Source: Papiliotrema nemorosa (Eukaryota > Basidiomycota > Tremellomycetes > Tremellales > Rhynchogastremaceae). Taken from it: a DNA stretch of 64,000 nt. Below, piece by piece: positions 622-52,419 of the stretch. Position numbers and translations under genes: made by a program. The notes beneath the pieces were generated by a model, which saw nothing but the letters and a program-made list of their open reading frames with translations, ran no database searches and had not been told where the DNA came from. The stretch covers positions 1-64,000 of the forward strand of contig JASKOT010000048.1 of the NCBI GenBank assembly GCA_032158125.1, written 5' to 3'. How positions within the stretch are numbered: position 1 is the stretch's first letter; each line of letters opens with the position of its first letter.

Positions 622-1116
622 TCAATGGATACAGCTTGTTGCGAGGTGCGAATCACAGATCGCCAGACGCAAGAACAATTGGAAAATCAGGGCATTCATA
701 ATGGGGTCGAGCACAAAGCAACCTGACGCATCGCGCCACATGTGGAAGAATCGAGAAAGACCGTCTTGGACGAGGCAAGGGGCAAACGAGGTGACAGCTC
801 AGTGAGGAGACGATTGACAATGGTAGCAAGGCAAACCACGGGCAGACTCGCTGCAATGAAACGCATATGAGGCTTGTACATCGGCGTCTGTAGAGTCTAG
901 AATACCGTAAGCGACGTTGAAAGGACGCAACAGCACCGACTCGTTGCACTGCGTCAGCTATATGAGGTTTTGCGTGTTCTGGTGGTTGATGTTGCCCTTT
1001 GTGCTTACTTTGCTTATAAAAATCAAGCAGAGTTCGTGCAGCCGTCTGATTCATCCTCATCCTGAGCATCTTGTCAACAACTCTACTGAATTTTCATCTT
1101 CCTAACCAACTCAAGC
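622..1116. other. Intergenic, nothing recognised
   Basis: A minus-strand frame of 138 codons (653-1069) crosses this stretch but has an Arg/Cys/Ser-rich composition typical of an antisense shadow. I see no RNA gene or repeat here. The last 60 bases are the leader of the next gene. Confidence 0.3.
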
Positions 1117-1534
1117 ATGCCTAAGACTCGGAACGCAGTTTCCAAATGGTCACAGGAAAGCACACTGTTATCAAATGTGGTATGTTACCTTTGCCGCGAC
1201 GCATAATAACCCTTTCCAAGAGAAATGAGGATACTGATCACCCTTACAGGCATCCATTATCAGAGACAAAGCCAAGAAGATTGATGATGTGACTTACTAT
1301 GATGTGAAGAGCTTCATTGGCCGACACTTGGACAAGGGGTCATCTTGGAAGGATGGGACAAAGATGGCTTTTGCTTCTCAAGAATCAATTTGGTATGGTA
1401 CAGGTCAAGCTTGTGTACACACAGAATCTGAGGTAAACACTATTGTAGTGGGTGCCCTGCAAGAGATCTTGGCCAAACTTGGGACATCAAGCGCAACACA
1501 GTCAAATACAGGCACAGTATCAGGCACTCAGTGA
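1117..1534 (+). CDS. Small two-exon hypothetical protein in CpG-poor DNA
   Basis: Exon 1 is 1117-1179. A GTATGT donor and a TTACAG acceptor bound an intron at 1180-1249, with a CTGAT-type branch site. Exon 2 is 1250-1534. The junction keeps phase and yields 115 residues starting MPKTRNAVSKW. The protein is soluble-looking, with a basic N-terminus, a middle part rich in Lys, Asp and Tyr, and a Ser/Thr/Gln tail. I do not recognise the family. Its DNA is as CpG-poor as the paralogue array at 15.6-21.1 kb (see findings) and lies directly upstream of a copia relic, so it may be an old gene in silenced DNA or part of a mobile element. The clean intron argues that it is or was expressed. Confidence 0.45.
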
Positions 1535-1815
1535 GCAATAAGGTGAGAGGTCAGATTCAGGACCACTAGAGCAAGATGTAGAAAGGTGTGCGCCGGAATT
1601 GCATGCAGAGAACAAAGCAGAAAACTGTTGGGCATTGTGTGTTACCCTATGAGAGTTGCTTGTGTCAGGATTGATACATTCAACACTATTCACTCAACTC
1701 GTTCCATTGGAAAGCCCACCCCTTTAGCCCTCTTCCACATGTGGACAGTGTTGAATGATCCTTGCCCACAATGTTTGCCAATTTTGTTGCTTTTGTCAGA
1801 GTTGTAACTGTTTGT
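1535..1815. other. Intergenic between small gene and copia relic
   Basis: CpG-poor sequence with no supported gene. It may include further decayed copia pol sequence, but I cannot read a conserved motif in it. Confidence 0.3.
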
Positions 1816-2017
1816 CATGAAGGCTAGCTCAATGCAACTTACTTTTGCCACCAATGACCAAGGATATATGACCAAAGCATCAACAACTTTGCCTATTTTG
1901 CTGAAATTGCCTACTCCAGTGACTACTTGACGACCCTTGCTACGGACCCAATTATTGCCAAAGAAGCCCAAGGAAAGGCATAGCATCAGGTGGATCATCA
2001 TTCAACTCTTTGTCATC
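1816..2017 (+). pseudogene. Relic of Ty1/copia pol C-terminus
   Basis: The plus frame from the ATG at 1816 reads a sequence with 'LTFATNDQ' followed by 'MTKAS'. It resembles the end of the copia RNase H domain, where 'T-x-DQ-x-AD-x-x-TKALP' precedes the 3' LTR. The frame stops within about 40 codons. A closely similar peptide is encoded on the minus strand at 18376-18567. Only the 3' end of the element is present, with no integrase or reverse transcriptase, so it is a truncated, dead copy. The family assignment rests on this short motif plus the downstream LTR-like repeat. Confidence 0.55.
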
Positions 2018-12940: not shown

Positions 12941-13723
12941 CTAGTCCCGCGTGTAATCCCCATCGGCGACGTCGTACGCTCTAGTCTTCTTTGTAGGCGA
13001 AGTGACGATCGAGGGCGCGCCTTTCTTGCTTTCTTTAGTCGATACCGCTCGAACGGATCCAGGCTTGCTCTTCGAGACCAGGTGATCCGGCCGTTCCGAG
13101 ATATCCCTCAATCCTGATAATATCTCCATGTGCAACTTTTTCGACTTTTCCAAAACCAACCGCCTCTCTTCGGCCGCTTTCATCTCTCGCTCAGTCTGCG
13201 AGTTGGTCTCTCCATGCAGCCTCGCCAGATCCGAAGTCCACATCTCGAGCTTGTTTGTGCGGTACTTCAGCTCGTCCTTGATTTCGTCCCGATCTTGGGT
13301 CATCTCCCTCAACTTCCTCTCCAGTTCATCGATCTTGGGCTGCAATTCTCCTCTAATGCGAGCTTCGACATCTCTCTCCGCCTTGGCTTTGACCTCTTTG
13401 GCTATCCTTCCATCCTCCTCTCTACCTTCCTTTTCCCGGTCGAGCAACGATTGGACTTCCTCTTGTTTGATATGCGCATCATCTGCCGCTTGCTCTGCTA
13501 ATCGGAGGCGTTCTCCTTGGTTCTCATAGTCTTTGACCAAGAGAGGGTAGTCGTCATAGACCTCTAATAGCTCTTTGAGGGGTACATGAGACTGACGTAG
13601 CTTTCGCTGTTCCAGAGGGATCGCAGAGAACGGCTGACTGGAGCGAATTCGCTCGGTCGAGGGGGATCCATTGGAGGATGGCGGGGAGACGGACGACGGG
13701 GCTTTGGATTTCGATTTGAACAT
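12941..13723 (-). CDS. Coiled-coil protein, unknown function
   Basis: A single exon of 260 residues starts at an ATG. Residues 1-40 are Ser/Pro-rich and probably disordered. Residues 45-205 form a long, highly charged helix dominated by Glu, Lys, Arg and Leu in heptad-like spacing, that is, a coiled coil. The C-terminal 50 residues are basic and Ser/Lys-rich. No catalytic motif or membrane segment is present. The start 'MFKSKSKAPSS' is basic. A cytoskeletal or spindle-pole accessory role would fit the architecture, but nothing in the sequence proves it. Confidence 0.65.
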   Translation of the reverse strand: MFKSKSKAPSSVSPPSSNGSPSTERIRSSQPFSAIPLEQRKLRQSHVPLKELLEVYDDYPLLVKDYENQGERLRLAEQAADDAHIKQEEVQSLLDREKEGREEDGRIAKEVKAKAERDVEARIRGELQPKIDELERKLREMTQDRDEIKDELKYRTNKLEMWTSDLARLHGETNSQTEREMKAAEERRLVLEKSKKLHMEILSGLRDISERPDHLVSKSKPGSVRAVSTKESKKGAPSIVTSPTKKTRAYDVADGDYTRD

Positions 13724-14016: not shown

Positions 14017-15072
14017 TCAAGCTCGGTCGTCCGAAAGAACGTTCCAATTCTCCATGTGCTCCTCGAGAGCCGCATGCCATCCAACAAGATCTCTACAATG
14101 AGTTTGAATCTGCTTGATCGCCTGTGTCTCCATCTCTAGCGTTTCTCTGTCAGCATCTCCCGAGAGCATCGTCTCAAGCCTGTGTGACCAAGCTGAGAAA
14201 GCTTCGATGTTGGTTTGCAATCGTTGCCATTCCTGACGGTCCACGCTGTACAATTCGTCTCCGTCATCGCCCTGCCTGGTGGCCTTCAAGCACTTTGCGG
14301 TCTGCTTTTCCAGCAAATAAGGGAGTTTCAGCATATCACTCATTGTCGACTCGCGAGGAAAGTTCAGGTCTGAGTACAAGTGAGTGAGAACCTCGCAGCC
14401 CTTTTTCACCGAGTAGAGGTTCATTTCTCTCAGATCGTCCCATCGCTTGGCAAATGACCAGAAGGAAGTAGGCTGTCCGCTATTCTCAGCATCGAGGCGA
14501 TAGACCTTGGGTATCTCCGCCTTCGTATGGGCCTCGCGCCGATTCGCCGTAGAGTTTCTGGTTGATCGTCGAGTCACCACCCTGTCAGTCGTAGCCAAAA
14601 CGCGAGGTGGTCGATGACAGCCCAATCTCTGTTCCCGCTCGTATTCTCCAGTAAGCGTGGAGTTCACATGAATCAGTTCAGCGGCAGCACAGTGCACCTC
14701 GCTGAACTGGCGAGTGTACTCGGATTCCAGCGCCTGGGTGGACTTGACCAGGTCCGTTTGCGTCGATTCCGACTTGACCATTTTCTCCAGTTGAGCGTAC
14801 TGAGCGATAAAGCTTCGAAGCTTGAATCTGTCATCATCGTACTTGTCGGTGGCTATTTGTAGCTCTGCGTGATCAGACTCTGCATCGACTGCCGCGGGAC
14901 CGAAAAGAGCAACGAGGTCGAGGGGCAAGAGCATGTCTTCTTCGCGAGGCAATTCGAATTTCGCTGTTAAAGCTGCGCGAAGGGAGAGGATACTTGAGGT
15001 CCATTTCGAATGAGCAGTTACCAAGGCGTCTTGGATGGCTGAGTAGTTTTCGTTGAGAGATAGCTGTGACAT
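14017..15072 (-). CDS. Array paralogue 1, minus strand, normal CpG
   Basis: One exon of 351 residues; the start is the ATG at 15072. It is the most divergent member of the six-gene family here. Shared features with the tandem copies are an N-terminal helix beginning 'YSAIQDALVTAHSKW', a central 'RWDDLREMNLYSVKKG' equivalent to the R-x-x-x-RDWSY-x-AI block of the others, and a C-terminal 'CRDLVGWHAALEEHME' equivalent to 'CRDLIFWQDQLEQLME'. A basic insert around residues 175-200 is unique to this copy. It is predicted soluble and all-helical, with no signal peptide. Its DNA has normal CpG: I count 40 in 14461-14940. Function unknown. Confidence 0.6.
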   Translation of the reverse strand: MSQLSLNENYSAIQDALVTAHSKWTSSILSLRAALTAKFELPREEDMLLPLDLVALFGPAAVDAESDHAELQIATDKYDDDRFKLRSFIAQYAQLEKMVKSESTQTDLVKSTQALESEYTRQFSEVHCAAAELIHVNSTLTGEYEREQRLGCHRPPRVLATTDRVVTRRSTRNSTANRREAHTKAEIPKVYRLDAENSGQPTSFWSFAKRWDDLREMNLYSVKKGCEVLTHLYSDLNFPRESTMSDMLKLPYLLEKQTAKCLKATRQGDDGDELYSVDRQEWQRLQTNIEAFSAWSHRLETMLSGDADRETLEMETQAIKQIQTHCRDLVGWHAALEEHMENWNVLSDDRA

Positions 15073-15528
15073 TGCGTCGAGGTGATATAGCAAGAACCGG
15101 CTGATTGTGAGTGGGGTGTCGGGATGGATGAAGGCTTATAAAGCCTTCGAGACCGAGGTAGACCGTGCAGATCATGTAGCAGATGGCGTATGACTCGAGT
15201 GTGAATGAATCTCTGAAAAGAGTGATAGACTGATTCTCGAGCGTCATGGCTTCGATAACGCAGTAGAGCTTCGTTGAGATATCAAAGGGCTAGGAGAGCT
15301 GTCGACTCACACAATCAGGCGATGCATTCCACGTCAGGGCTTACGACTTCTGAGATCCTTTGAGACCCTCGTCAGCCTTCAGCTTAGCGTTTCAAATATG
15401 ATCAACCGAAGTCGGTTCATACTATATATTCTCACGGAGTCGAACAAGTTGCAGCGCATCGCTCATAACACTGTTTTCTTCTCCTTTTCCATCATCTGCT
15501 CGATAGTCTATTGCAAGCCAATTGCACC
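15073..15528. other. Divergent promoter of array paralogues 1 and 2
   Basis: No gene supported. The stretch separates the minus-strand copy from the first plus-strand copy. TATA-like ATATAT sits near 15422. CpG is still near normal here and falls within the first 150 bases of the next gene. Confidence 0.35.
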
Positions 15529-16386
15529 ATGCCTGAATTTTCCGTCGCACAATCCGCAACATGGACGGCACTAAAAGCCAAGATCCAGTCTGCACATGAT
15601 ACCTACGCAAGCTGCAGGACAGCCTACTATGAATCCAAGGGACAGCCCAGCGCCGGCTACCCTTTCGAAGTGAAGTCAGTCTTTGACATGGTAGAAGGCT
15701 CAGAGTTGGCATATATCACAATGATGAACTTTGAGTGTTACTACGCCGCTCTGTTGGAAGTGCAGCCACTGGCAGAACATTCAAGATCTACTTTCACAGG
15801 CTCCAACAAAGAGCTACTCCTCAACTTTGCTCGCTCTCATGCACACCTTACTAACGTCTTTGGAACCATTGTTGCGTACTTCCAAGAAGATGTCTTGCCT
15901 ACTTCTATGGGTCTCTCGATGGAAAGCTCACAAGGATTAGGGGTCCTCCCCAAACATGCAGAGTGGGAAAGATATGCAGCGCAGACACGAGCTAAAGGTT
16001 TACACAAACAAAGCCTGCAAAATGCAATTCTTGCAAAGCAGATATTGGAGGAAACAAATTCATCCCAGTCAATCACCAATCGCATCCAGGCCCTCAACAT
16101 GGAAAGAACCTTGTTGACAGTGAATGGCCTGTATGGTGACACAGGTCATGCATCCAAAGATCCTACCTCAGGGATAGAGGTCCCCAAGCGCAAAGTATTA
16201 TGAGAAGATTTCAACAGTCTTAGCAAGAGTGTGAATGACCTTGTAGCCGCCACTCAAGAGCTCACTGTTTCAGATGAAGACACAAAGCTACTTGTGACAT
16301 CGCTAGAGAGCTTCTTGTACTGGCATCAGCAACTGCATAAACACCTAGAAAGTGCGGGAGCAATTGTGGATGACATGGGTATCTAG
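15529..16386 (+). pseudogene. Array paralogue 2 with in-frame TGA
   Basis: The frame starts at the ATG in CACCATGCC and runs 286 codons to a TAG at 16384-16386. It is interrupted once, by TGA at 16201-16203 (codon 225). Beyond that stop the same frame still encodes the family's conserved C-terminus, including 'LESFLYWHQQLHKHLESA', so this is a single-point nonsense mutation and not a frameshift. A change from CGA to TGA is the simplest origin. The N-terminal part has 'NFARSHAHLTNV' and 'VAYFQEDVLP', equivalent to 'RRSYANLTDS' and 'ISFLQ' in paralogue 4. It may be a pseudogene or yield a truncated protein of 224 residues. Confidence 0.6.
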
Positions 16387-16948
16387 TTGAGGCATTGAGG
16401 ACTTCACAAAAGGGCCTTGATTTTGTGACGCAACAAGGCAGATTTAGATAGCATGGGTCATGATGAAAGTAGCTGCAGAGTACTATCTACTGAGCCGTCT
16501 CATGAGCCACTTCATGAACAGAGGGGGAACAGTACATTCAGGGCACAATGAAGACTTTGACCTTCCCCGTGCAATATATTTCCCATTTGGCACTTGCAAA
16601 GGGCAGTCCTTACAATCAGTGCCTGCCACATGGCACAGAATGAAAGGATCTGCACAGTACTGCCCACAAAGCCTTCTCGCAAGGGTCATGTCTGGGGTGA
16701 GGGGATATGTAATATTTCCCATGCAGTATCTTTTGACATTTGTCTTATACAAGGGAGAGAGTTCAGACAAACAATGTCTTCCAGGAACATCCTTTGAGAG
16801 TGACCTTTACTGATATCTTGTTGGCTTCTTGAACAAGTGGGTGAAAGGTTTATTGCGTGAATCATGACTCACATGAGGGTGTATCTGTGCTGAAGTGTAT
16901 ATGTGTATTCACATTTCTCCCTAGGTCTGGTCTCTACCTTCATCAACA
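16387..16948. other. Intergenic within array, CpG-poor
   Basis: A frame of 117 codons at 16460-16813 lacks any family motif and I do not support it. The stretch holds the probable promoter of paralogue 3, with TATATG near 16898 and a short leader ending in CATCAACA. Confidence 0.3.
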
Positions 16949-17818
16949 ATGTCCTACCTTGATCCCGCTGCTATTCTGCATTGGATGCAGCTCAAGCAGG
17001 AGATTGACTCCACCAGCAATGCGCTTCAAAGCTCCTGTGACAAGTTCTATCAACATAAGTATCTTGACTCAGTGAAGATCAGTAGACCAGCCCCTTTGAT
17101 ATTGGAAAAGGCCGTCAAAGATCCAATCAATAATTTTGTTCAAGATACAGTTCATAGCGAAATATGTTGTACTGATTACTGTGCAACCCTTGCAAAAGCT
17201 GTACCTCCAGCCATTGAAGAGTCAGAGTTTGAGGAGGCCAGCAGCAGCCTCCTCCGGGACCTAGAAGACTACAGCCTATCTTACGCTCATCACACCAAAG
17301 CACTCTCAAATGTGATTGCATTTTTGCAAGCAAGTCAGCTCCCAGAAAACTCCACAGATGAAGCGGTGAAACCTCTGATGAAGTTTCTGGCAATTGACTC
17401 TTCAACCCTGAATGATCTTGCACTCCAAAGAGCTAGGCTTTCCCGTGATTGGAGTTACAGGGCTATCACTGCAGCAGCAACACGCCTAAATCATATGCCT
17501 AACACTGCTGAACCCATTTTGGATTTAGTGGACTGGTGTGACAGAATTGGAATATTGATGGGCCAATTTGAAGAATCATGTCTGGATGAGGAGCCTAAAA
17601 AACCTTCTCAAGCACCATCTGCCAATATCTTGAAGACCTACAAAGCACAGGTCCAGGCATTGGAGGAGTTAGTTGCTGAAGAGGGTACAGACGGCCAAAA
17701 GTCTGACATGGAGTTCTTGGTGTCATCATGCCGTGATCTGATCTTTTGGCAGGACCAGCTGGAGCAGCTCATGGAAAGCACCTACAAGACAGCTTCAGAT
17801 TTGTCTTTGAGCAGATGA
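16949..17818 (+). CDS. Array paralogue 3, CpG-depleted
   Basis: An intact single exon of 289 residues starts at an ATG in CAACAATGTC. Family blocks in order are: an N-terminal helix with 'CDKFYQHKYL' at about 30; 'CCTDYCATL' at about 75; 'YSLSYAHHTKALSNVIAFLQ' at about 110-130; 'RARLSRDWSYRAITAAATRL' at about 165-185; and the C-terminal 'CRDLIFWQDQLEQLME'. The product is helical, acidic and without signal peptide or membrane span. I count only 7 CpG in 16981-17460, against 33 in an equal length of paralogue 6. The frame stays open despite that, suggesting either recent selection or only mild decay. Function unknown. Confidence 0.6.
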   Translation: MSYLDPAAILHWMQLKQEIDSTSNALQSSCDKFYQHKYLDSVKISRPAPLILEKAVKDPINNFVQDTVHSEICCTDYCATLAKAVPPAIEESEFEEASSSLLRDLEDYSLSYAHHTKALSNVIAFLQASQLPENSTDEAVKPLMKFLAIDSSTLNDLALQRARLSRDWSYRAITAAATRLNHMPNTAEPILDLVDWCDRIGILMGQFEESCLDEEPKKPSQAPSANILKTYKAQVQALEELVAEEGTDGQKSDMEFLVSSCRDLIFWQDQLEQLMESTYKTASDLSLSR

Positions 17819-17998
17819 TGAAGACCTTGCAAGAGGTCATGTTCCTCATATTCAAAACTTATCTTTATGGCTTGCCTGTGATTCAGAGACCAATGTTCAG
17901 ATGGGGAAGTTGGATGGAGAGACCTGGGTGCAAGAACAGGTAGACAGCAGCTACATTGGTAGGAAGTCATGATGAGTGAATGGATGCATAGTGTCACG

Positions 17999-18375
17999 TT
18001 GCTCCACTACTAGTTACCAGCCCAACGCGTGACTAGTTTATCTGATCTAGGGAAAGAAGGTACTCAACGATATATGTGAACTTAGTTATCAGCAATTAAG
18101 TCGCCTAAGTCGCTGAGGGATGAGTGATGTTTGCCGAGAGTGAACGAGGCAGGAGGATTTGGACGAGAGTGGCTAGAGAACGAGAGGAGCGCAAACTGGA
18201 GATGACAGAGGGCAATACTACGAGTAGATAACGAGTAGTGATGCAGAAAGCACTGTTATAGTGTTGTATTGACTCAATAACAAGAAGCTAAAGAAACAAT
18301 CCACCGCCTATCTCCTACTTATATACCTACCAGGCAACAAACGAAGGGAATCCTTGGGCGTTGGATGATGATGAC
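17999..18375 (-). mobile_element. copia-type LTR, minus-strand copy
   Basis: This is the inverted counterpart of the repeat at 2018-2385. It reads 5' to 3' from about 18375 to 18000. It has a TATA-like TATATAAGTA, the block around 18231-18289 and the perfect 22-base block 17999-18020. Next to that block the left copy has CA where this copy has CG (GCAT versus GCGT), a CpG transition. The outer boundary near 18375 is approximate. No full-length partner LTR is seen, so the element is truncated. Confidence 0.6.
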
Positions 18376-18567
18376 GAGTTGAGTGATTTTCAACTTGACG
18401 CTCTGCCTTTCCTTGGGCTTTTTTGGCAATAAATGGGTCCGCAACGAGAATCGCAGAGTAGCCACTGGAGTAGGCAATTTCAGTGAAATAGGCAAAGTCG
18501 TGAGAGCCTTGGTCATAGCTGCTTGGTCATTGGTGGCAAAAGTAAGTCGCGTTGAGCTAGCCTTCAT
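18376..18567 (-). pseudogene. Relic of Ty1/copia pol C-terminus, minus strand
   Basis: The minus frame beginning at 18567 reads a peptide with 'LTFATNDQAAMTKALTTLP', almost the same as the relic at 1816. It matches the end of copia RNase H ('DQ-x-AD-x-x-TKALP'). The frame continues with Lys/Arg-rich sequence to the start of the LTR. No upstream pol domains follow, since plus-strand gene-array DNA begins again at about 18570. It is a truncated, inactive fragment. Confidence 0.55.
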
Positions 18568-19014
18568 GACACATGGATTATCACAGAGTCATGACAGGAA
18601 ATCAAATTCACCACAAGCAACATACCAAGCATGCACTGTCATCTATGCTGTCACAATGGCATGCCACCTAACCATTGATCAAGACCGCCTTTATAAGGAG
18701 GCTTTGAATTCAGCTGCTCAGGTTGAATTCAAGCGGCATATATGGCCCTCATGACATATGCGCCTCACAAATCACACGTTCCCACCCTTTTGTTTCCCAG
18801 GGGAAGGCAGCATTCACATGATTACCTTCAATGGTCCTTTCACTGCATGTCCTGCTGAATTTTTCAGGGTATCTGGAGACCTCAAAGAAACGTTTGCCAG
18901 TAAAGGTGGGTTTGCTAGTCAAGGTTGTACGTGGAATGTTGACTTGAAAGTGACAAAGATAAGAAACATGTCCAATCCCTACATATTCCCCCCAGCTTCA
19001 CCCACCATTTTGCA
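18568..19014. other. Intergenic within array, CpG-poor
   Basis: No gene supported. The region follows the copia fragment and should contain the promoter of paralogue 4. The last 60 bases are C/A-rich and precede the ATG. Confidence 0.3.
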
Positions 19015-19941
19015 ATGTCCACTCAGGCCACCTGGTCTGCTCATCCGGAGTCTAACCCCATCATAGAGCTAATGAAGGCTCAAGCAGGGCGCCAGGATTG
19101 CCACAAGAAGTTCTGGCAGCATAGAGATCTTCTGACCTCAATGATTCCCGGAATCACTGAACCACCGGCTATGCTTTGTCCAATTCAGTTGATTAATCAC
19201 CTCTGCAATAACACTGGCCATGGCTCTGTGGAGAGCAAAGATCTATTCAATAATTATTGCTCTGCCCTGTACAACTCTCGACCCCCACCCATCTGTGATT
19301 GGGCAGCTCTTGAACTGGCTCCAAGACCAATCTATGAGGATCGTGAAGCCTGCCGGCGCTCATATGCCAATCTGACTGATTCTGTTAGCAATACAATTTC
19401 TTTTTTGCAGGGGACAAATCATGTACAGATGTCCTCAACAGGGGAAATGCTGCTTGCTGGGAGGAGGTGTCAAGAGGACAATTTTGACAGCCTCAGCCAC
19501 CTTGTTGACAGAAGAACACTCTTGGCCCGGAACTGGAGCTATCACAATGTGGTGGCTGCTATAGAGCTACTGAGGGATACACAAACAAATCAGCGGGAGC
19601 TCCTTGATGTGATGACTGAATTTGAGGCAATTAATCATCCAGATGATTATTTTGACAGTATCTATGATCTCAAAGAAGATGCAGCAACAATTTTCAAGCA
19701 GCTCCCAGCCTGTGATTTCAGCATTGCTCTACTGGTTACAGAAGCTTACAACGGGGGAACCAAACAAGAGATGGAGGATGCACTTTTTTTACAAACATCA
19801 TACTACAAATGGATCCATTGGCAAGAACTTGTGGGCCAGATTCAAAATACTATGGCTGGGGCTGCAGCGACCACCTGTGCAGGTGTTGCATACAACGGGG
19901 AGGATGTAACCATGGAGGGCCAAATTGAGTCAGGTTCATAA
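19015..19941 (+). CDS. Array paralogue 4, CpG-depleted
   Basis: An intact single exon of 308 residues. Family blocks are 'CHKKFWQHRDLL' at about 30, 'LFNNYCSALYNSRPPP' at about 75, 'CRRSYANLTDSVSNTISFLQ' at about 115-135, 'RTLLARNWSYHNVVAAIELL' at about 170-190, and the C-terminal 'YYKWIHWQELVGQIQNTM'. It has an extra acidic, Gly/Ala/Thr-rich tail of about 30 residues. No signal peptide or membrane span is seen. I count 8 CpG in 19081-19560. It lies directly downstream of the minus-strand copia fragment. Function unknown. Confidence 0.6.
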   Translation: MSTQATWSAHPESNPIIELMKAQAGRQDCHKKFWQHRDLLTSMIPGITEPPAMLCPIQLINHLCNNTGHGSVESKDLFNNYCSALYNSRPPPICDWAALELAPRPIYEDREACRRSYANLTDSVSNTISFLQGTNHVQMSSTGEMLLAGRRCQEDNFDSLSHLVDRRTLLARNWSYHNVVAAIELLRDTQTNQRELLDVMTEFEAINHPDDYFDSIYDLKEDAATIFKQLPACDFSIALLVTEAYNGGTKQEMEDALFLQTSYYKWIHWQELVGQIQNTMAGAAATTCAGVAYNGEDVTMEGQIESGS

Positions 19942-20277
19942 TCCTTGAGTGGGACATTCAAGGTAGATGGTAATCATAGAGATGAGTGGTTCAGGGTGTG
20001 ATGTAGCTGTTTGAGAACAGGTCTTGCAAATATTTCTGTGGAAAAGCATTTATTGTGCGAGAGACTGCAGGTTCACCGCATGATGATAGGCCAGGTGGGG
20101 TAGTCCCCACATCTGAGAGATTCTCAGAAGCTATCCCTTGATGGAGGTCCTTCAGGCATGACTAGACAAAGGTCTGCCAGGAAAGTATGTCTCAGGGCAG
20201 AGAGTGTGTCTACAGTGAGCATGTATATGTACCTGAGCAGACTGTCTGCTGATATGAGACTCACCTTTTTTTCCATC
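19942..20277. other. Intergenic within array
   Basis: CpG-poor spacer with no gene. A TATATGTA at about 20223 lies some 55 bases before the next ATG and could be its TATA element. Confidence 0.3.
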
Positions 20278-21090
20278 ATGCTGAATATGGATGAACCAAC
20301 TTGTGAGTATTGGAGAATACAAAAAGGCAAGTTATGCGATTGTCTTCAAGAGTACAAGACCTCGCACAACCAGTTTTGGTCACATGAAGCAACTCTCAAT
20401 TCATTGGGGTTTCCAACACCGGCGGCAATGAATCTCTCAGCAGGTGCAGTGGAGGATGTTGCTGACAGCAATCATCCCTCTTTCCTAACAGATGTGCAGT
20501 TCCACACTTTCTGCTCTGATCTGGAACAGAAATATCCTCCAGTCATCTTCAACAACAATACTGTGTGCTCAATATCTACTGAGCTCCTTGAAGATTGGCA
20601 ACATAACCGACGGTCATATGCCAGACTCACCATTGTGGTCAGCGACCTAATCTCGTTTTTCCAGCAAGACCAGGTTGCAACTAACCGCCAAAATGTTGTC
20701 CCATTGAGAGAGTTTCCCTTACATGATCTCTACTCGGCACAATGTTCAAAACAGAGGATACTCAGCTCCTGGTCATGGAGCTTCAATGCAGTTGAGACTG
20801 CACTAGACCTGCTTGTATACAACAATCCCATTTGGTTGCAATACACTTCTTTCCAGGAGTGCGCAACAGCATTTCAAAGCCTGAAGAATGGATTAAAGAA
20901 TCCAGATACCAACACCTCAAACTCACATAACAGGATGTCTTGTCTCATCAATGACACTCAAGAGAGGGCTCAAATATTCTTTGAAGAACTGAGAAGTGGG
21001 GACCCCACTGCCCAGGAATTGCGTGATGCAGGGCTGTTGCGAAAAGGAAGTAAGCGCTTGGCCTTCTGGCACCAGGCTCAAGAGCCCTAG
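20278..21090 (+). CDS. Array paralogue 5, CpG-depleted
   Basis: An intact single exon of 270 residues, taking the ATG at 20278 because upstream in-frame Met codons precede any family homology. Blocks are 'SHNQFWSHEATL', 'FHTFCSDLEQKYPP', 'NRRSYARLTIVVSDLISFFQ', 'RILSSWSWSFNAVETALDLL' and the C-terminal 'GSKRLAFWHQAQEP'. The C-terminus ends right after the conserved Trp, as in paralogue 6, so it is not an obvious truncation. I count 9 CpG in 20401-20880. Predicted soluble and helical. Function unknown. Confidence 0.6.
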   Translation: MLNMDEPTCEYWRIQKGKLCDCLQEYKTSHNQFWSHEATLNSLGFPTPAAMNLSAGAVEDVADSNHPSFLTDVQFHTFCSDLEQKYPPVIFNNNTVCSISTELLEDWQHNRRSYARLTIVVSDLISFFQQDQVATNRQNVVPLREFPLHDLYSAQCSKQRILSSWSWSFNAVETALDLLVYNNPIWLQYTSFQECATAFQSLKNGLKNPDTNTSNSHNRMSCLINDTQERAQIFFEELRSGDPTAQELRDAGLLRKGSKRLAFWHQAQEP

Positions 21091-21729
21091 CGCAGGTCAG
21101 CAGTGTCTATATGGAGGTCTGTGCAGTGTAGACTACGAGTTAGGCACTAATTCCTGCTCTGTGTTGATGGTTGCTGGACATGACATTTTTGGGGTATATG
21201 TATCAGTCTACAGAGCGGCATATGAATATCTGAAGAGACGTGCAAGGAGTCCAGCTGTGACCCAGAATGCAATGTTTCTCTGTTGTATCAGTGCGTCCCA
21301 GGTGTTCAACAAGAATGCTCATTTTCTGTGTTGTGCCCCCGAAAGTCCTGCAGATACAAGCAAGCCAATTTGTCTGGTCAATGTGCATGTGTCCAGCTTG
21401 TCCTACACCCCTGACATTTCTTGCAAGCTGGCAGCACATGCTATCTTCCCCATTTTGTGGGTGATTCTTCCAGAGCTTCTGAACATGACATCGGTCTAAG
21501 CCTTGTGGCTCTCAACAAGGCAACTCTTCCCTAGAAAGGTTCACATATCTCTTGCATGCTTCTCATTTCTCTGTCTTCTAATGCCGGGCACGGGGTTGAA
21601 TCCAAAGGTTGCTCATTGCACTAAGGATGTGAGAGGTACAGGCTCTTGTGCGATGTTTGCCAGAACTCATGCACCCCGAGCATATGTATCTTGGCCGTTT
21701 TGGGTCGTTTTCTCATAATCCTTCTGATC
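21091..21729. other. Spacer and right CpG boundary of array
   Basis: A frame of 167 codons (20996-21499) overlaps the end of paralogue 5 in another frame and has no family motif, so I do not support it. CpG frequency returns to normal at about 21.6 kb, just upstream of paralogue 6. Confidence 0.35.
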
Positions 21730-22530
21730 ATGACCAGTCTGGAATCAGCTGCCGACCTTGATACAGGATCCAAGGACCGTCAAATCGACCTCGCGAGCCT
21801 GTTTGTCGACGCTCATGAGAGGTTCGTTTCCACTATGAATACCTTCTATGGTTCAATCTCAGCTGCTTCTCAATCAATCGCCGAGCCCTTCCCAGTCACA
21901 GACCTCGTCGGCGATGTCGAGCTTACTGAACATCTCGAAGACAACCTCATGAACTACTGCCGAGATGTAGCCTATGGGCGACCCCTCATCCCTGATGAGG
22001 GCTGGTTTGACAATGGTGTTTCTTCCGAGATCCTGCAGACTTTGGCAGATTGTCGACGCTCTCGCGCCGACCTTGTCATTGTGCTCACTGATGTCATCTC
22101 CTGCTTGCAAAACGACGTGCCATTCAGTCAAACCAGCGCAAGCGGACAAGATCGACAGTTCCGACGGGTGCTTCCCTCGAAGGGTTTTACCAACTCAGCA
22201 TATTATGCTAAGGAGAGAGCACAATACGCAAGAGACTGGTGTTTGTACGCTATCGACGCTGGCACCGCCCTGCTGAAAGGGAGCGAAATCCCCGCTCTCG
22301 AGACAGAGCTGGAAGCTGTGCCGCATTGGGTCTCGAAGAGTCAAGGATTCCCAAGACAGGACTCGAGTGCACTCCTGGCTGACCTCCCAGAAATCAAGAT
22401 TATGACTGAATCGGTGGTGAAAAGTGTCAAGAATCATGGCAACGAACAGCAGCAGCGTGACGCAGCGCTTGTGCTTGATGGCATAAATCGCCTACAGTAC
22501 TGGGGGAACGTTTCTGAGCCTACGCCTTGA
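21730..22530 (+). CDS. Array paralogue 6, normal CpG
   Basis: An intact single exon of 266 residues starts at ATCATGACC. It shares 'LFVDAHERFVSTMNTFYG', 'LMNYCRDVAYGRPLIPDEG', 'CRRSRADLVIVLTDVISCLQ', 'RAQYARDWCLYAIDAGTALL' and the C-terminal 'INRLQYWGNVSEPTP' with the other copies. Codon use is C/G-ending and CpG is normal (33 in 21781-22260), unlike copies 2-5. That makes it and paralogue 1 the likely active members. Predicted soluble, helical, acidic. Function unknown. It is convergent with NNT, whose stop lies 235 bp downstream. Confidence 0.6.
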   Translation: MTSLESAADLDTGSKDRQIDLASLFVDAHERFVSTMNTFYGSISAASQSIAEPFPVTDLVGDVELTEHLEDNLMNYCRDVAYGRPLIPDEGWFDNGVSSEILQTLADCRRSRADLVIVLTDVISCLQNDVPFSQTSASGQDRQFRRVLPSKGFTNSAYYAKERAQYARDWCLYAIDAGTALLKGSEIPALETELEAVPHWVSKSQGFPRQDSSALLADLPEIKIMTESVVKSVKNHGNEQQQRDAALVLDGINRLQYWGNVSEPTP

Positions 22531-31580: not shown

Positions 31581-33428
31581 ATGCCCGCTTCACACGGTGC
31601 TGACCTCAGATTGATGGAGAAGCAGGACCCCTCTGACCAACCTCAGACTGGCTTCGATATGCCGTCTCGACTGAGCTCGCCCCCTTCTACCCCCTTGGCG
31701 GGTCTGATCCCACGACGACGACATTTCCGACGTTGGACAAGGGACTACCGCTTGATCCTCGTCACCTTTGTCGTCCTCGGAGGGATCTTCCACACTCAGC
31801 TCTTCGGACTAGACACGACGAAATCATGGGACGCATTGTCAAACCTCCCTTCTTCCCTCTCTCCATCCACATCCAGAATCGCTCATACGTCTCCACCTCT
31901 GTTCCCAGCTGTCCCTGACGATATCGAGCCGTATCACCCTGCACCTATCCTAGTCTCTCGACCCAACTCCTCCGAAGTCGCCTTCACAAGCCACTACCAC
32001 GATCACCCTTATCCCGGTATAGCCTACCACTTGTCTTCTGCCGTTCACCCATCCAAGAACATCGTATACGAGACCAACTATGTCGTGGGGAGTAAATGGA
32101 ATTTTGAACAGATTGATAATTTCGACTGGATGAGGATCGGGGTTCAGTTCCTCTTACCATACGGTATGGCCCATCTCTCCTTTACCTGCGACTATGCTCG
32201 AGCCGGGTCGAACAAGTACGAGACACTCGTGGCGAGGACCGTGTTACAAGGGAGGAGAGAGTACATCCATGTGGAGTGTCCCCTCCCATCGTGGGTACAC
32301 CTCGATACGACCATGCCGGAGACTCAACTCGTCAAAGCTTTGAACCAATTCAAGAGGGACAAGATGAGGATGCAGGCTTGGTTGGAGATCGATCCAAATT
32401 CCAAGGAGACGGATCCATGGCAGGATTGGCGAAAAGGTCCAGTATCACCCGAAGCCACCACGAGGGTCAACGAGACGACGGGTTTGACCCATGTGTTGAT
32501 TGCGACCCAAGAGCTCTCGGGTAACGACTGGACAAATTCGGGACCGGGGAATCGGCTCGGTATATGTCTCTCTCCTATCCGACTATACCCCAAAGACCCC
32601 AAAGACGACAATGCGAAACTCATCTCGCAGTTGAAAGACTTTGTCGAGTGGAGAGTTTGGAGTCAGTTTGTAGGTGTCGAAGTCGTTCACTGGAGCTCTC
32701 GACACCCGAATTTCATCCGATGGGTCGAAAAGCTCAACCAGTTGCTTGGGCTGCATGATGATTTCCTCGCTGCCCCTGCGGCGTCTGAGTCATTCATTAC
32801 TCATCGACGAGACTACGGGGATCAAGTACTGTACCTTGCCGATTGTTTATTGCGACACGGTGTGACGGACAAGTATCACGCTATGATCGATTTCGACGAG
32901 TACATGTTGGCTCGAGACGATCCTACCCCTTATAGCGCCATGCGACGTCTCCAAGGACTCAAAAACGACACGGGAACATTTTCCATCGACCACACATATT
33001 ACGGTGGTGATCCCATCCCCCCAACCGACGAGTACGCCCCGCCCCGTGTTCCCGCCTTACCTAAATTCCCCCGAAACGCATACAAAGGATGGGACACGTT
33101 GGAAAAGCCAGATGGATACAGACGACAGAAATCGATATACCTCACGAGCGCGGTAAAGTCCATCTGGGTCCATGCGCAGACGGAAATGGGGGATGATTTC
33201 TGGCGTAAAGACGATTATCCCGGAATCCCACCTGATAAGGGGGACTACCCGTCCCAGTTGGAATTGATGCACGATAGGAACCCCAAACCAGTCAAGTTGG
33301 TCATTGAGAAGGAGGTGGATAGTGATCAACCGAGAAAATGGCAGGACATGTGGAGGATGATGGCAGAGGTATTGGCCAGGCCGGAGCTGGAACAACTATG
33401 GGACCTGGCTCTGGTAGAGCAGGAGTAG
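31581..33428 (+). CDS. Type II membrane protein, glycosyltransferase family 92-like
   Basis: A single exon of 615 residues, starting at the ATG at 31581 (the open frame upstream has only a TTG). Residues 1-55 are cytosolic and Arg-rich near the membrane. Residues 56-76 are one hydrophobic signal-anchor, giving a Golgi type II topology. The lumenal part has 'NYVVGSKWNFEQIDNFDW' around 165 and 'YHAMIDFDEYMLARDD' with an acidic DFDEY at 437-441, resembling the metal-binding core of GT92/DUF23 glycosyltransferases. Around residues 363-373, 'GVEVVHWSSRHPNF' fits the beta-strand region before it. Substrate is unknown, and the family call rests on the DFDE motif and architecture. Confidence 0.62.
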   Translation: MPASHGADLRLMEKQDPSDQPQTGFDMPSRLSSPPSTPLAGLIPRRRHFRRWTRDYRLILVTFVVLGGIFHTQLFGLDTTKSWDALSNLPSSLSPSTSRIAHTSPPLFPAVPDDIEPYHPAPILVSRPNSSEVAFTSHYHDHPYPGIAYHLSSAVHPSKNIVYETNYVVGSKWNFEQIDNFDWMRIGVQFLLPYGMAHLSFTCDYARAGSNKYETLVARTVLQGRREYIHVECPLPSWVHLDTTMPETQLVKALNQFKRDKMRMQAWLEIDPNSKETDPWQDWRKGPVSPEATTRVNETTGLTHVLIATQELSGNDWTNSGPGNRLGICLSPIRLYPKDPKDDNAKLISQLKDFVEWRVWSQFVGVEVVHWSSRHPNFIRWVEKLNQLLGLHDDFLAAPAASESFITHRRDYGDQVLYLADCLLRHGVTDKYHAMIDFDEYMLARDDPTPYSAMRRLQGLKNDTGTFSIDHTYYGGDPIPPTDEYAPPRVPALPKFPRNAYKGWDTLEKPDGYRRQKSIYLTSAVKSIWVHAQTEMGDDFWRKDDYPGIPPDKGDYPSQLELMHDRNPKPVKLVIEKEVDSDQPRKWQDMWRMMAEVLARPELEQLWDLALVEQE

Positions 33429-50164: not shown

Positions 50165-52419
50165 ATGAATCGAGCTAACACGGATGACTCACATACCAAA
50201 GGTCCGCCTTGTTCAGTTGCCAGCTTGGTTGAGCTGATCATAGATGTATCGACAGCGGTCATCGAGCCTGAGGTGCGTTTCGGGGAGAGCCAGCCGGCTC
50301 AAGACACGCTACTCGAGGAGTTCGGGTGAGTAGAAAGAACTCTACAAGTTTGGGAGATGACGAATAGCTACGTCCAGGAAATGCGACGGGCAAGTGTAGC
50401 TCTCAATGATGCGGTTTATCCCAACTAATCACCTCAGACTCGAACGACATTCAACTTGGTACTGATGCTCCTGGTGTTAGGTTCACCGCCATATGGTTTG
50501 GCCACTACGTTCTTTTACACCTTGGGCAATGGGGGTCCCCTAGTAGCGATCTACGACTGGATCATCGTTGTGCTCGCAAACCTCTGCGTCGCCGTAGCTC
50601 TGGGAGAGATCGCCTCGCTGTATCCTGTCTCCGGAGGAGTATACTATTGGACATACATGCTGTCCCCAGCCAAGTTCAAACCGATAGTCTCGTGGATAGT
50701 TGGTTGGCTCATGGTTGTGGGAAACTTGACAGTATCGCTCGCTGTCAACTTTGCGTCAGTCTTCACACTCATGCATATGACGAATCTGACCTTCAGTACC
50801 GCCCAGTTGATACTGTCGGCTGTGATTAGTGAGACCACATTGATACTTTGGGGCTCATATCAGTCTTCGTCCCCGACTACGTTCCCAAGCCTTTTCATAC
50901 TGTTCTCACCTGCTTCGCCATGTAAGTGGGACCAGCACGAGAAGGTCAAAGCTGATTAATCTAGCATTTTAGTTTTAGGTATCATCGCATTGGTGGGACA
51001 ACGATATCTTCAGCACGTCGATGTGAGTCATCACCTTCAAGGCACAGCTTCGTCTCCCTCAACAGCAGACTTTCTCTCTGGTTGTATCAATAGCAGTGTA
51101 AGTCGACTGCATCAGAATGACACCAGACTCACTTGCAGCGTTCTTGCTGTACTGATTACTTTACCCGTCAAGGCGGCGGCTGGTCGTCGATCTGCCAAAT
51201 TCGTCTTCGCGTGAGAGCATCATGGTCAGCATGACTACAGGACTGACCAGTGACAGCGAGATCATGGATATGGGCGCAGGCTGGCCGAGAGGGGTCGTGA
51301 GTTCACGCAATACAGCAAGAATTCCCGGCTGAAAAGTAGCAATGGCTGTTGGGCTTGATACAAGGCTCGTACTGCTTTTGTGGGACTGGCATGTTGGCCG
51401 CTATGGCTGAAGAGACCATCCGGCCAGAAGTGACCCTCCCTCATTCTATGTGAGTTAGGTCTTGACAGGTCTCACGAGCTTCAGTTGATGCTCAGGCTGG
51501 CAGGCGTCAGTGCACAGTAAGCGCAAGGTCTCGTTGCTGGTCAATCTCTGCTGACCATGTACAGAGGTGTTTTCGGGCTTCTGTTCTTACTACCCATCAT
51601 GTTCACGCTTGGAGACCTGTCCACCATCTTGGCAAGTCCAACTGGACAGCCTATAATTGAGATCTTCTTCGAAGCCGCCGGTACCAGTGGCGCAGCTTTT
51701 GGTCTTTTCTTCCCAAGTGAGTCGATCCTTTGTATCGCAGTCTGATGACCTAGTCTTGCTCATTGGCCTATGCTGCGGGCTCGCATGCTCCCAAGCGACC
51801 TCTAGGTCCGTCTGGGCGTAAGTTCAACTTACACCTAGACTTCGTACCACCCCTAAACATCAGTTTCGCACGAGATGGAGGTATTCCCGGTAAAGCAATA
51901 TTCGGCAGAACTTCACAACGACTGGAGATGCCCGTCAACGCTTTCCTCCTTCAAGCTGGTCTCCAAGGCGCTTTAGCGTGTATTTACTTTGGCTCGACCG
52001 CCGCTTTCAATGCTTTCGTCGGTGTCTCGGTCATCTCCTTGGGCGGGTCAATCATCGTGCCCGTCTTGATGTCGCTTATTGATCGACGTCGACAAGTGTC
52101 GCAGTCCAAGTTTTACAAAGGAAAACTTGGAGCCTTTTGCGCTTGGTGAATCTCTCCACTCGCAGTATCGTAACTGTACGAATACTGATGTCTCAAGGGT
52201 TACTGTCTTGTGGTATGCTCTTTTGATCCCTCTCTTGTCGTTCCCCCCATATCTCCCTGTCACCGAAGCGAATATGAATTGTGAGTCTCGGTCGATTCCC
52301 CATTGACTTCAGACGCCGCGATGGTCTTTGTGGGCTTTGCAGCGCTGGCCATGGTGTGGTACGCAGTCTACGGTCGAAAGCATTATCATGGACCACCAAA
52401 TGGTCATGTCTCCCTGTAA
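50165..52419 (+). CDS. APC permease, GABA/choline type
   Basis: An amino-acid/polyamine/choline importer of the APC superfamily. The ATG at 50165 gives an N-terminus leading into 'EEFGYVQEMRRTRTTFNL'. That junction needs a GC-AG intron (50390-50437, donor GCAAGT). Later signatures, over ten or more small exons, are 'EIASLYPVSGGVYYWTYM', 'KAAAGRRSAKFVFAEIMD', 'MLAAMAEETIRPEVTLPHSM', 'LASPTGQPIIEIFF', 'SFARDGGIPGKAIFG' and 'MPVNAFLLQAGLQGALACIY'. It ends 'YAVYGRKHYHGPPNGHVSL'. The helix order matches Uga4/Hnm1-type fungal permeases. I placed the first five junctions exactly; those from 51023 to 51560 are less certain because this part is diverged. Confidence 0.87.

What the first reader, a model, noticed from the sequence alone, without database searches (positions are those of the whole stretch)
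14017..22530. Six-member paralogue array of an unrecognised protein family
Six genes (one minus, five plus) encode 266-351 residue helical proteins that share an ordered set of blocks: C/S-x-x-x-[FWY] near residue 30; a Tyr/Cys motif near 75; R-R-S-Y-A-x-L...I-S-F-[LF]-Q near 120; R-x-x-L-x-R-x-W-S-Y-x-A near 175; and a C-terminal aromatic-W-x-x-x-L-x-x block. Pairwise identity looks low outside these blocks, so the family has diverged fast while staying in tandem. No signal peptide, membrane span or known catalytic motif is present. Fast-evolving tandem families of this type are often involved in genomic conflict, self/non-self recognition or host interaction, but nothing here proves a function.
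Basis: partly seen in the sequence, partly recalled or inferred. Interest (0 to 1): 0.85.

Follow-up and report, generated by a model that had tools for sequence, protein, structure and literature searches.

The report
Orphan gene array in CpG-eroded DNA
A yeast-like fungus carries a row of related, unrecognised genes, and the middle of the row lies in DNA that has lost most of its CG letter pairs, as silenced transposon DNA does, yet three of the four genes there still read through intact; that matters because genes are thought to avoid such mutation-prone DNA.

Summary
The array is real but smaller than claimed. Four plus-strand genes (g3-g6) are certain paralogues; g2 is a fifth, cut by an in-frame TGA; the minus-strand gene g1 is not shown to belong and has a weak relative on another contig. 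The proteins look soluble and, for the one modelled (g3), all-helical, with no Pfam family, no relative beyond own-sequence hits in a 5.8-billion-protein collection, and no clear fold match. The genome is Kwoniella-like: it has Dnmt5 and a second DNA methyltransferase.

The unexpected part: from inside g2 to just before g6 (about 15.75-21.75 kb) CpG observed/expected falls from about 0.93 to about 0.25. CpG-poor flanks of LTR copies elsewhere in the genome show the same order of loss by base context (TCG most). Three genes inside stay open, and their remaining CpGs are over-represented in arginine CGN codons (retention 0.45 against 0.17 and 0.14), as expected if selection keeps the proteins. 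Other CpG-poor LTR flanks also hold long non-transposon frames, including two paralogue pairs.

Best reading: a gene array kept by selection inside long-methylated heterochromatin. Methylation, expression and protein function were not measured; the proteins' role remains a guess.

The parts
14017..15072 (-). g1, 351-aa frame; not shown to be a family member; relative of a 433-aa gene at C44:30432-31730
15529..16203 (+). g2, family member, 224 codons up to an in-frame TGA
   Evidence: 33.6 bits, 0 of 395 scored shuffles
16204..16386 (+). continuation of g2 homology after the TGA (60 codons and a stop)
   Evidence: 12.5 bits, 0 of 420 scored shuffles
16949..17818 (+). g3, 289 aa, open, CpG o/e 0.24; AlphaFold2 model all-helical
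17992..18571 (.). 580-base solo LTR (TGTCA...TGACA, flanks CATAG/CATGG), CpG o/e 0.81
19015..19941 (+). g4, 308 aa, open, CpG o/e 0.25
20278..21090 (+). g5, 270 aa, open, CpG o/e 0.33
21730..22530 (+). g6, 266 aa, open, just outside the island, CpG o/e 0.90
15751..21750 (.). CpG-eroded island (250-base tiles mostly 0.08-0.52, apart from the LTR)

Best explanation
The locus is a tandem array of at least five paralogous, apparently intronless genes for soluble, acidic, probably all-helical proteins, so far without known relatives, in a Kwoniella-like tremellomycete. Its middle (inside g2 to just before g6) has for a long time lain in a CpG-methylated heterochromatin domain of the kind that holds LTR retrotransposons in this genome. 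Deamination of methylated CpG removed about three quarters of its CpGs; selection kept g3, g4 and g5 open and spared arginine CGN codons, while g2 acquired a stop. Shown here: homology of five members, the CpG island, its likeness to LTR-flank erosion, the open frames, the codon-position bias, and genes for Dnmt5 and a second DNA methyltransferase. Inferred: methylation as the cause, its present state, silencing most of the time, and the genus. Guess (about one in four): the proteins are conditional intracellular binding or scaffold factors, expressed in a narrow stage, whose divergence is sped up by their mutable location.
For: Homology. Island: 7 of 64 1-kb tiles of the window are below 0.6, six of them 16001-22000; the other 57 are 0.73-1.13; 89 tiles fetched elsewhere have mean 0.93 and minimum 0.67. 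TpG and CpA are raised, TpA is not. Same context order of loss in the island and in 49 low-CpG tiles beside other LTRs: TCG 0.115/0.136, ACG 0.245/0.218, CCG 0.328/0.292, GCG 0.339/0.341 of background. Methyltransferases. Selection: CpG retention at codon positions 1-2, 2-3, 3-1 in g3-g5 0.45, 0.17, 0.14 (17, 10, 11 CpGs; Fisher p=0.002 for positions 1-2), in 15 other low-CpG frames 0.31, 0.16, 0.15 (p=0.0009). Longest frames in the two halves of the island 297 and 332 codons against 192 and 242 as the longest in 200 shuffles each.
Against: No methylation or expression data. g2 is broken. Blind CpG decay leaves a frame open by chance in 0-39% of runs depending on the exon, so three open of four is not decisive. 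The codon test is post hoc, the 15 other frames were picked by eye, arginine content may shift it, and for positions 3-1 alone p is 0.066 (g3-g5) and 0.053 (others). The TCG preference is not what plain methyl-CpG decay predicts. g1 and g6 have normal CpG, so the island is not a property of the family, and g6 is as diverged as the others.
Confidence: 0.55

Rival explanations
1. RIP-like hypermutation: the tandem duplicates and nearby LTRs were recognised as repeats and mutated at CpG (preferring TCG), leaking into neighbouring DNA; divergence of the paralogues is largely its product.
For: CpG-specific loss with the strongest loss at TCG; RIP-like CpG mutation is reported in Basidiomycota and a TpCpG bias in Pucciniomycotina (PMC4014442, passages). 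20% of differences between LTR copies are CpG-type although CpG bases are 12% of sites. One gene of the array (g2) is broken.
Against: The repeat itself is less eroded than the single-copy DNA beside it: LTR mean 0.81, lower flank 0.41, higher flank 0.72; LTR above its lower flank in 25 of 28 (taking the lower flank favours this). Paralogues at 14-27% protein identity are far below what a repeat-recognising process would be expected to see today (inference).
Confidence: 0.2
2. Dying genes: the island genes are silenced relics, open only because decay has not yet hit them.
For: g2 has a stop; a related gene on C44 is split between two frames; chance survival of 0-39% per exon.
Against: Three of four genes are full length at CpG o/e 0.24-0.33; CpG retained at arginine codons; frames longer than any of 200 shuffles.
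Confidence: 0.12
3. Foreign or viral genes: intronless orphans acquired from a virus or another organism and silenced by methylation, as proposed for other eukaryotes.
For: The array looks intronless beside intron-split neighbours; no relatives found; methylated silent genes of viral origin are described in diverse eukaryotes (PMC12344493, abstract and passages).
Against: Family member g6 lies outside the island with normal CpG; loss follows the same context order as in DNA beside this genome's own LTRs; 0 matches at E<=0.001 among predicted viral structures.
Confidence: 0.08

Closest known systems
5mC heterochromatin of Cryptococcus and Kwoniella (Dnmt5, DnmtX; PMC11185503, passages)
   Same: Dnmt5 with chromodomain, a second methyltransferase, LTR elements, CpG-directed signature
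   Different: The passages read describe 5mC at centromeres, transposons and a few other regions; here the eroded DNA holds an array of genes that look selected
RIP-like CpG hypermutation in Basidiomycota, e.g. Rhizoctonia solani AG8 (PMC4014442, passages)
   Same: CpG to TpG/CpA change, also in genes near repeats
   Different: Here the loss is confined to sharp islands, near complete, and weaker in the repeat than beside it
Two-speed genome compartments of fungal pathogens (recalled)
   Same: Fast-evolving gene families beside transposons
   Different: Those are recalled as mostly secreted effectors; these proteins show no signal-peptide-like or membrane-like stretch by hydropathy
Methylated genes of viral origin in eukaryotes (PMC12344493, abstract and passages)
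   Same: Genes in repressive-methylation-type DNA
   Different: No viral relative found here

Membership tests
CpG-methylated heterochromatin of the Kwoniella type | Maintenance methyltransferase Dnmt5 in the genome | tested here: met
   L061:928-3852 - matches PDB 7r76_A at 1521 bits over residues 59-942; chromodomain in the upstream frame, E 9.6e-10. The chain is deposited as 'DNA repair protein Rad8'; that it is C. neoformans Dnmt5 is recalled. SNF2 part not examined.
CpG-methylated heterochromatin of the Kwoniella type | De novo methyltransferase DnmtX (BAH + DNMT) | tested here: inconclusive
   A second PF00145 match on C10 (E 3e-5, over the cut-off); further motifs and a possible BAH stretch seen by eye only
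CpG-methylated heterochromatin of the Kwoniella type | CpG-specific loss shared with LTR-bearing DNA | tested here: met
CpG-methylated heterochromatin of the Kwoniella type | 5mC and H3K9me2 present | not testable with these tools
   No methylation or ChIP data held
RIP-like mutation | Repeated DNA mutated more than single-copy DNA | tested here: not met
   LTR mean CpG 0.81, flanks 0.41 and 0.72, 28 copies; one repeat family only, and its age is unknown
RIP-like mutation | CpG (TpCpG) preference | tested here: met
   TCG retention 0.115 in the island, lowest of the four contexts
Secreted effector family | N-terminal signal peptide | tested here: inconclusive
   No hydrophobic N-terminal stretch in g1-g6 as read; no signal-peptide program; the frame of g6 has a hydrophobic stretch upstream of its ATG
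Described protein family (Pfam-A) | Match over the curated cut-off | tested here: not met
   0 of 6 array frames; C44 relative none
Known fold in the PDB | Match well above generic helical bundles over most of the model | tested here: inconclusive

The most novel reading that the evidence does not exclude
This fungus keeps functional, fast-diverging gene families inside CpG-methylated, LTR-bearing islands, where CpG deamination works as a local mutation engine that selection filters codon by codon: a methylated nursery for new genes.
Probability: 0.3. Interest if true: 0.82.

Novelty: new variant of a known kind. Interest (0 to 1): 0.6.

Why it matters
A 2026 review (PMC13297926, passages) says gene-body methylation was largely lost in fungi because of its mutational cost and that fungal 5mC became specialised for silencing transposons. 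If genes under selection live for long in methylated islands, that cost is being paid, and possibly used. Kwoniella is reported to have both a maintenance and a de novo methyltransferase (PMC11185503, passages), so the cause can be tested by removing either gene in a laboratory strain.

Tried and rejected
Species: an rDNA pattern found nothing; no species is claimed. g1 as a family member: left unproven. A weak hit of g5 on C20 (E 0.14) lies in a region of unrelated frames, hydrolase-like by eye, and was dismissed. AlphaFold2 of g1 with its C44 relative was poor (pLDDT 43.2, pTM 0.28) and was not searched. Structure hits of g3 (TTYH, McpS, TorS, 14-3-3, designed bundles) look generic; HET-S/HeLo-like domains, considered from memory, are not in the rows shown, which excludes nothing. 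Profile matches to an encapsulated ferritin and kinesin chains have E 0.2-0.45 and were dismissed; g3 alone to an aminotransferase E 0.02-0.05 likewise. Weak matches of two low-CpG frames from other loci to g1 (L044, E 0.007-0.009) and to the end of g2 (L039, E 0.007) in a set of 22 sequences were not followed. An intron removing the TGA of g2 was considered by eye; none with plausible signals and phase was seen. Papers: searches listed nothing that by title or abstract start concerns this family or selected genes in CpG-eroded islands of Kwoniella; most subscription journals are not held.
Full report
What is there. The window is the first 64 kb of an 87,203-base contig (C48) in a 19.19-Mb eukaryotic assembly of 68 contigs. 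Between a 260-aa, lysine/glutamate-rich frame (12941-13723 -) and an intron-split NAD(P) transhydrogenase gene (about 23-27 kb, -) lie six open frames: g1 on the minus strand, then g2-g6 on the plus strand.

Is the family real? Each of g3-g6 is found by a profile of the other three at 53-90 bits; of 500 shuffles each, 349-429 got a score and the best reached 12. Genome searches with g3, g4, g5 and g6 find the other three of them at E 1e-14 to 7e-4; g2 appears at E 0.01-0.38 in the three searches run with a loose limit (g4 was searched at 0.001), and nothing else except one dismissed hit on C20. These searches rest on a loose word-based first look, so remote members may be missed. g2 belongs (33.6 bits), is cut by an in-frame TGA, and the 60 codons after it still match (12.5 bits). 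g1 does not pass: 87 of 446 scored shuffles reach its score; only about 20 C-terminal residues resemble g3 and the end of g2. g1 does resemble a 433-aa gene on contig C44 (14.4 bits; best of 312 scored shuffles 5.7). Beside that gene lies a frame pair; its C-terminal part resembles the end of g2, g1 and g5 (E 0.002-0.014) and is in a different frame from the rest. So there is one array of five, and a second locus with a g1 relative and a probable remnant.

What the proteins are. 0 of 6 frames has a Pfam match over its cut-off. Three searches of 5.8 billion proteins returned only hits that look like the organism's own copies; I could not tell how well fungi are covered. The g3 model (five-row alignment) is all-helical, pLDDT 73.9, pTM 0.77; Foldseek gave nothing at E<=0.001 in the PDB or viral models, and the second look gave only values common for helical bundles. 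As read, all six are net acidic and have no membrane-like segment. Neighbouring genes are split into several frames (melibiase over three; transhydrogenase), and a simple intron-signature scan found none on either strand at 12-20 kb and none on the plus strand at 20-24 kb, so the array looks intronless.

The island. In 1-kb tiles CpG o/e is 0.21-0.26 at 16-18 and 19-21 kb, with TpG and CpA at 1.43-1.57 and TpA not raised; 57 of 64 tiles of the window lie at 0.73-1.13. In 250-base tiles the fall starts near 15.75 kb, inside g2, and ends near 21.75 kb, at the start of g6. Of 89 1-kb tiles fetched elsewhere (the rest of this contig, C44 and five other contigs) none is below 0.67. Inside the island one feature stands out: a 580-base solo LTR (TGTCA...TGACA, 5-base flanks differing at one base) with CpG 0.81, so it probably came later. 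The repeat has 67 matching stretches in the genome, fragments and this copy included. Of 28 copies examined, 19 have at least one flank below 0.45 and 7 have both. A second CpG-poor tract (1001-2000), ending at another copy of the repeat, lies near the contig start.

Cause. The genome encodes a Dnmt5 and a second cytosine methyltransferase. PMC11185503 (passages read) states that all Kwoniella have Dnmt5 and DnmtX while Cryptococcus lacks DnmtX, and that Kwoniella transposons are methylated. This fits the genome but does not prove the genus. CpG loss by context is nearly the same in the island and in 49 low-CpG tiles beside other LTRs, TCG lost most, which argues for one process. Methyl-CpG decay fits; the TCG preference is a loose end that RIP-like mutation would explain, but the repeat is less eroded than the single-copy DNA around it (0.81 against 0.41 and 0.72).

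Selection. If CpG loss were blind, arginine CGN codons should go like the rest. In g3-g5 CpG at codon positions 1-2 is retained at 0.45 of the background density (11 normal-CpG exons), against 0.17 and 0.14 at positions 2-3 and 3-1 (17, 10, 11 CpGs; Fisher p=0.002 for positions 1-2, p=0.066 for positions 3-1). In 15 other frames from CpG-poor tracts the values are 0.31, 0.16 and 0.15 (p=0.0009 and 0.053). Against g1+g6 alone the g3-g5 test gives p=0.012. The tests are post hoc, use hand-picked frames (one, in L034, may be a transposon frame, since it recurs at another LTR locus), and could be shifted by arginine content. Blind decay of g1 and g6 to o/e 0.22 gives on average 3.0 and 2.0 stops, none in 3% and 7% of 300 runs each; in five other exons none in 8, 0, 3, 12 and 39% of 200 runs each. 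So three open genes of four is suggestive, not decisive.

Is it general? In 24 CpG-poor LTR flanks (35.5 kb) there are 9 frames of 200 codons or more, against a mean of 0.07 and a maximum of 2 in 100 dinucleotide shuffles; the 32 other flanks have 10 against 0.26 (maximum 2 in 50), so both kinds hold coding DNA. Of 15 frames from CpG-poor LTR flanks given to Pfam, one is a reverse transcriptase, one a sub-threshold galactosyltransferase match, and none of the other 13 has a match over a cut-off. Two islands carry paralogues on either side of an LTR: C5 (tandem, open frames of 277 and 273 codons, 39% identical) and C19 (divergent, E 5e-26). So the array appears to be one case of a wider pattern: gene families inside CpG-eroded, LTR-bearing DNA.

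Verdict. Its protein function is unknown; a conditional intracellular binding role is a guess. The stronger discovery is where it lives: a sharply bounded CpG-eroded island whose genes still bear marks of selection.

Noticed in passing
window 1001-2000 (exon 1250-1531) and 1813-2391: A second CpG-poor tract (o/e 0.29) with a small two-exon gene read by eye (about 1118-1534), next to an inverted copy of the LTR repeat; no convincing paralogue of its exon 2 in the genome (best E 0.2).
   Followed up: partly
L054 (C5:330768-334580); L051 (C49): Tandem paralogues of an unknown family (frames of 277 and 273 codons, 39% identical) on either side of an LTR in CpG-poor DNA. A weaker relative in L051 (E 4e-5) was not returned by the genome search.
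   Followed up: partly
L049 (C19, LTR at 50250-50858): Divergent paralogue pair (E 5e-26), glycosyltransferase-like by eye, no Pfam match, on either side of an LTR in CpG-poor DNA.
   Followed up: partly
genome-wide, LTR flanks and window 15751-21600: CpG loss is strongest at TCG (0.115-0.136 of background), a preference that PMC4014442 (passages) reports as specific to Pucciniomycotina.
   Followed up: partly
C44:30432-31730 and 31983-32745 (L017): A 433-aa g1 relative beside a g2-like gene that is split between two frames; CpG there is 0.73-0.94 in 1-kb tiles, not eroded.
   Followed up: partly
window 21646-21729: The open frame of g6 runs upstream of its ATG through a hydrophobic stretch (no in-frame ATG, only a TTG); if used through another start or exon it could be a membrane anchor.
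   Followed up: no
L039 (C7, 2-1384 +): A 461-codon open frame in CpG-poor DNA that by eye contains two similar halves; no Pfam match.
   Followed up: no
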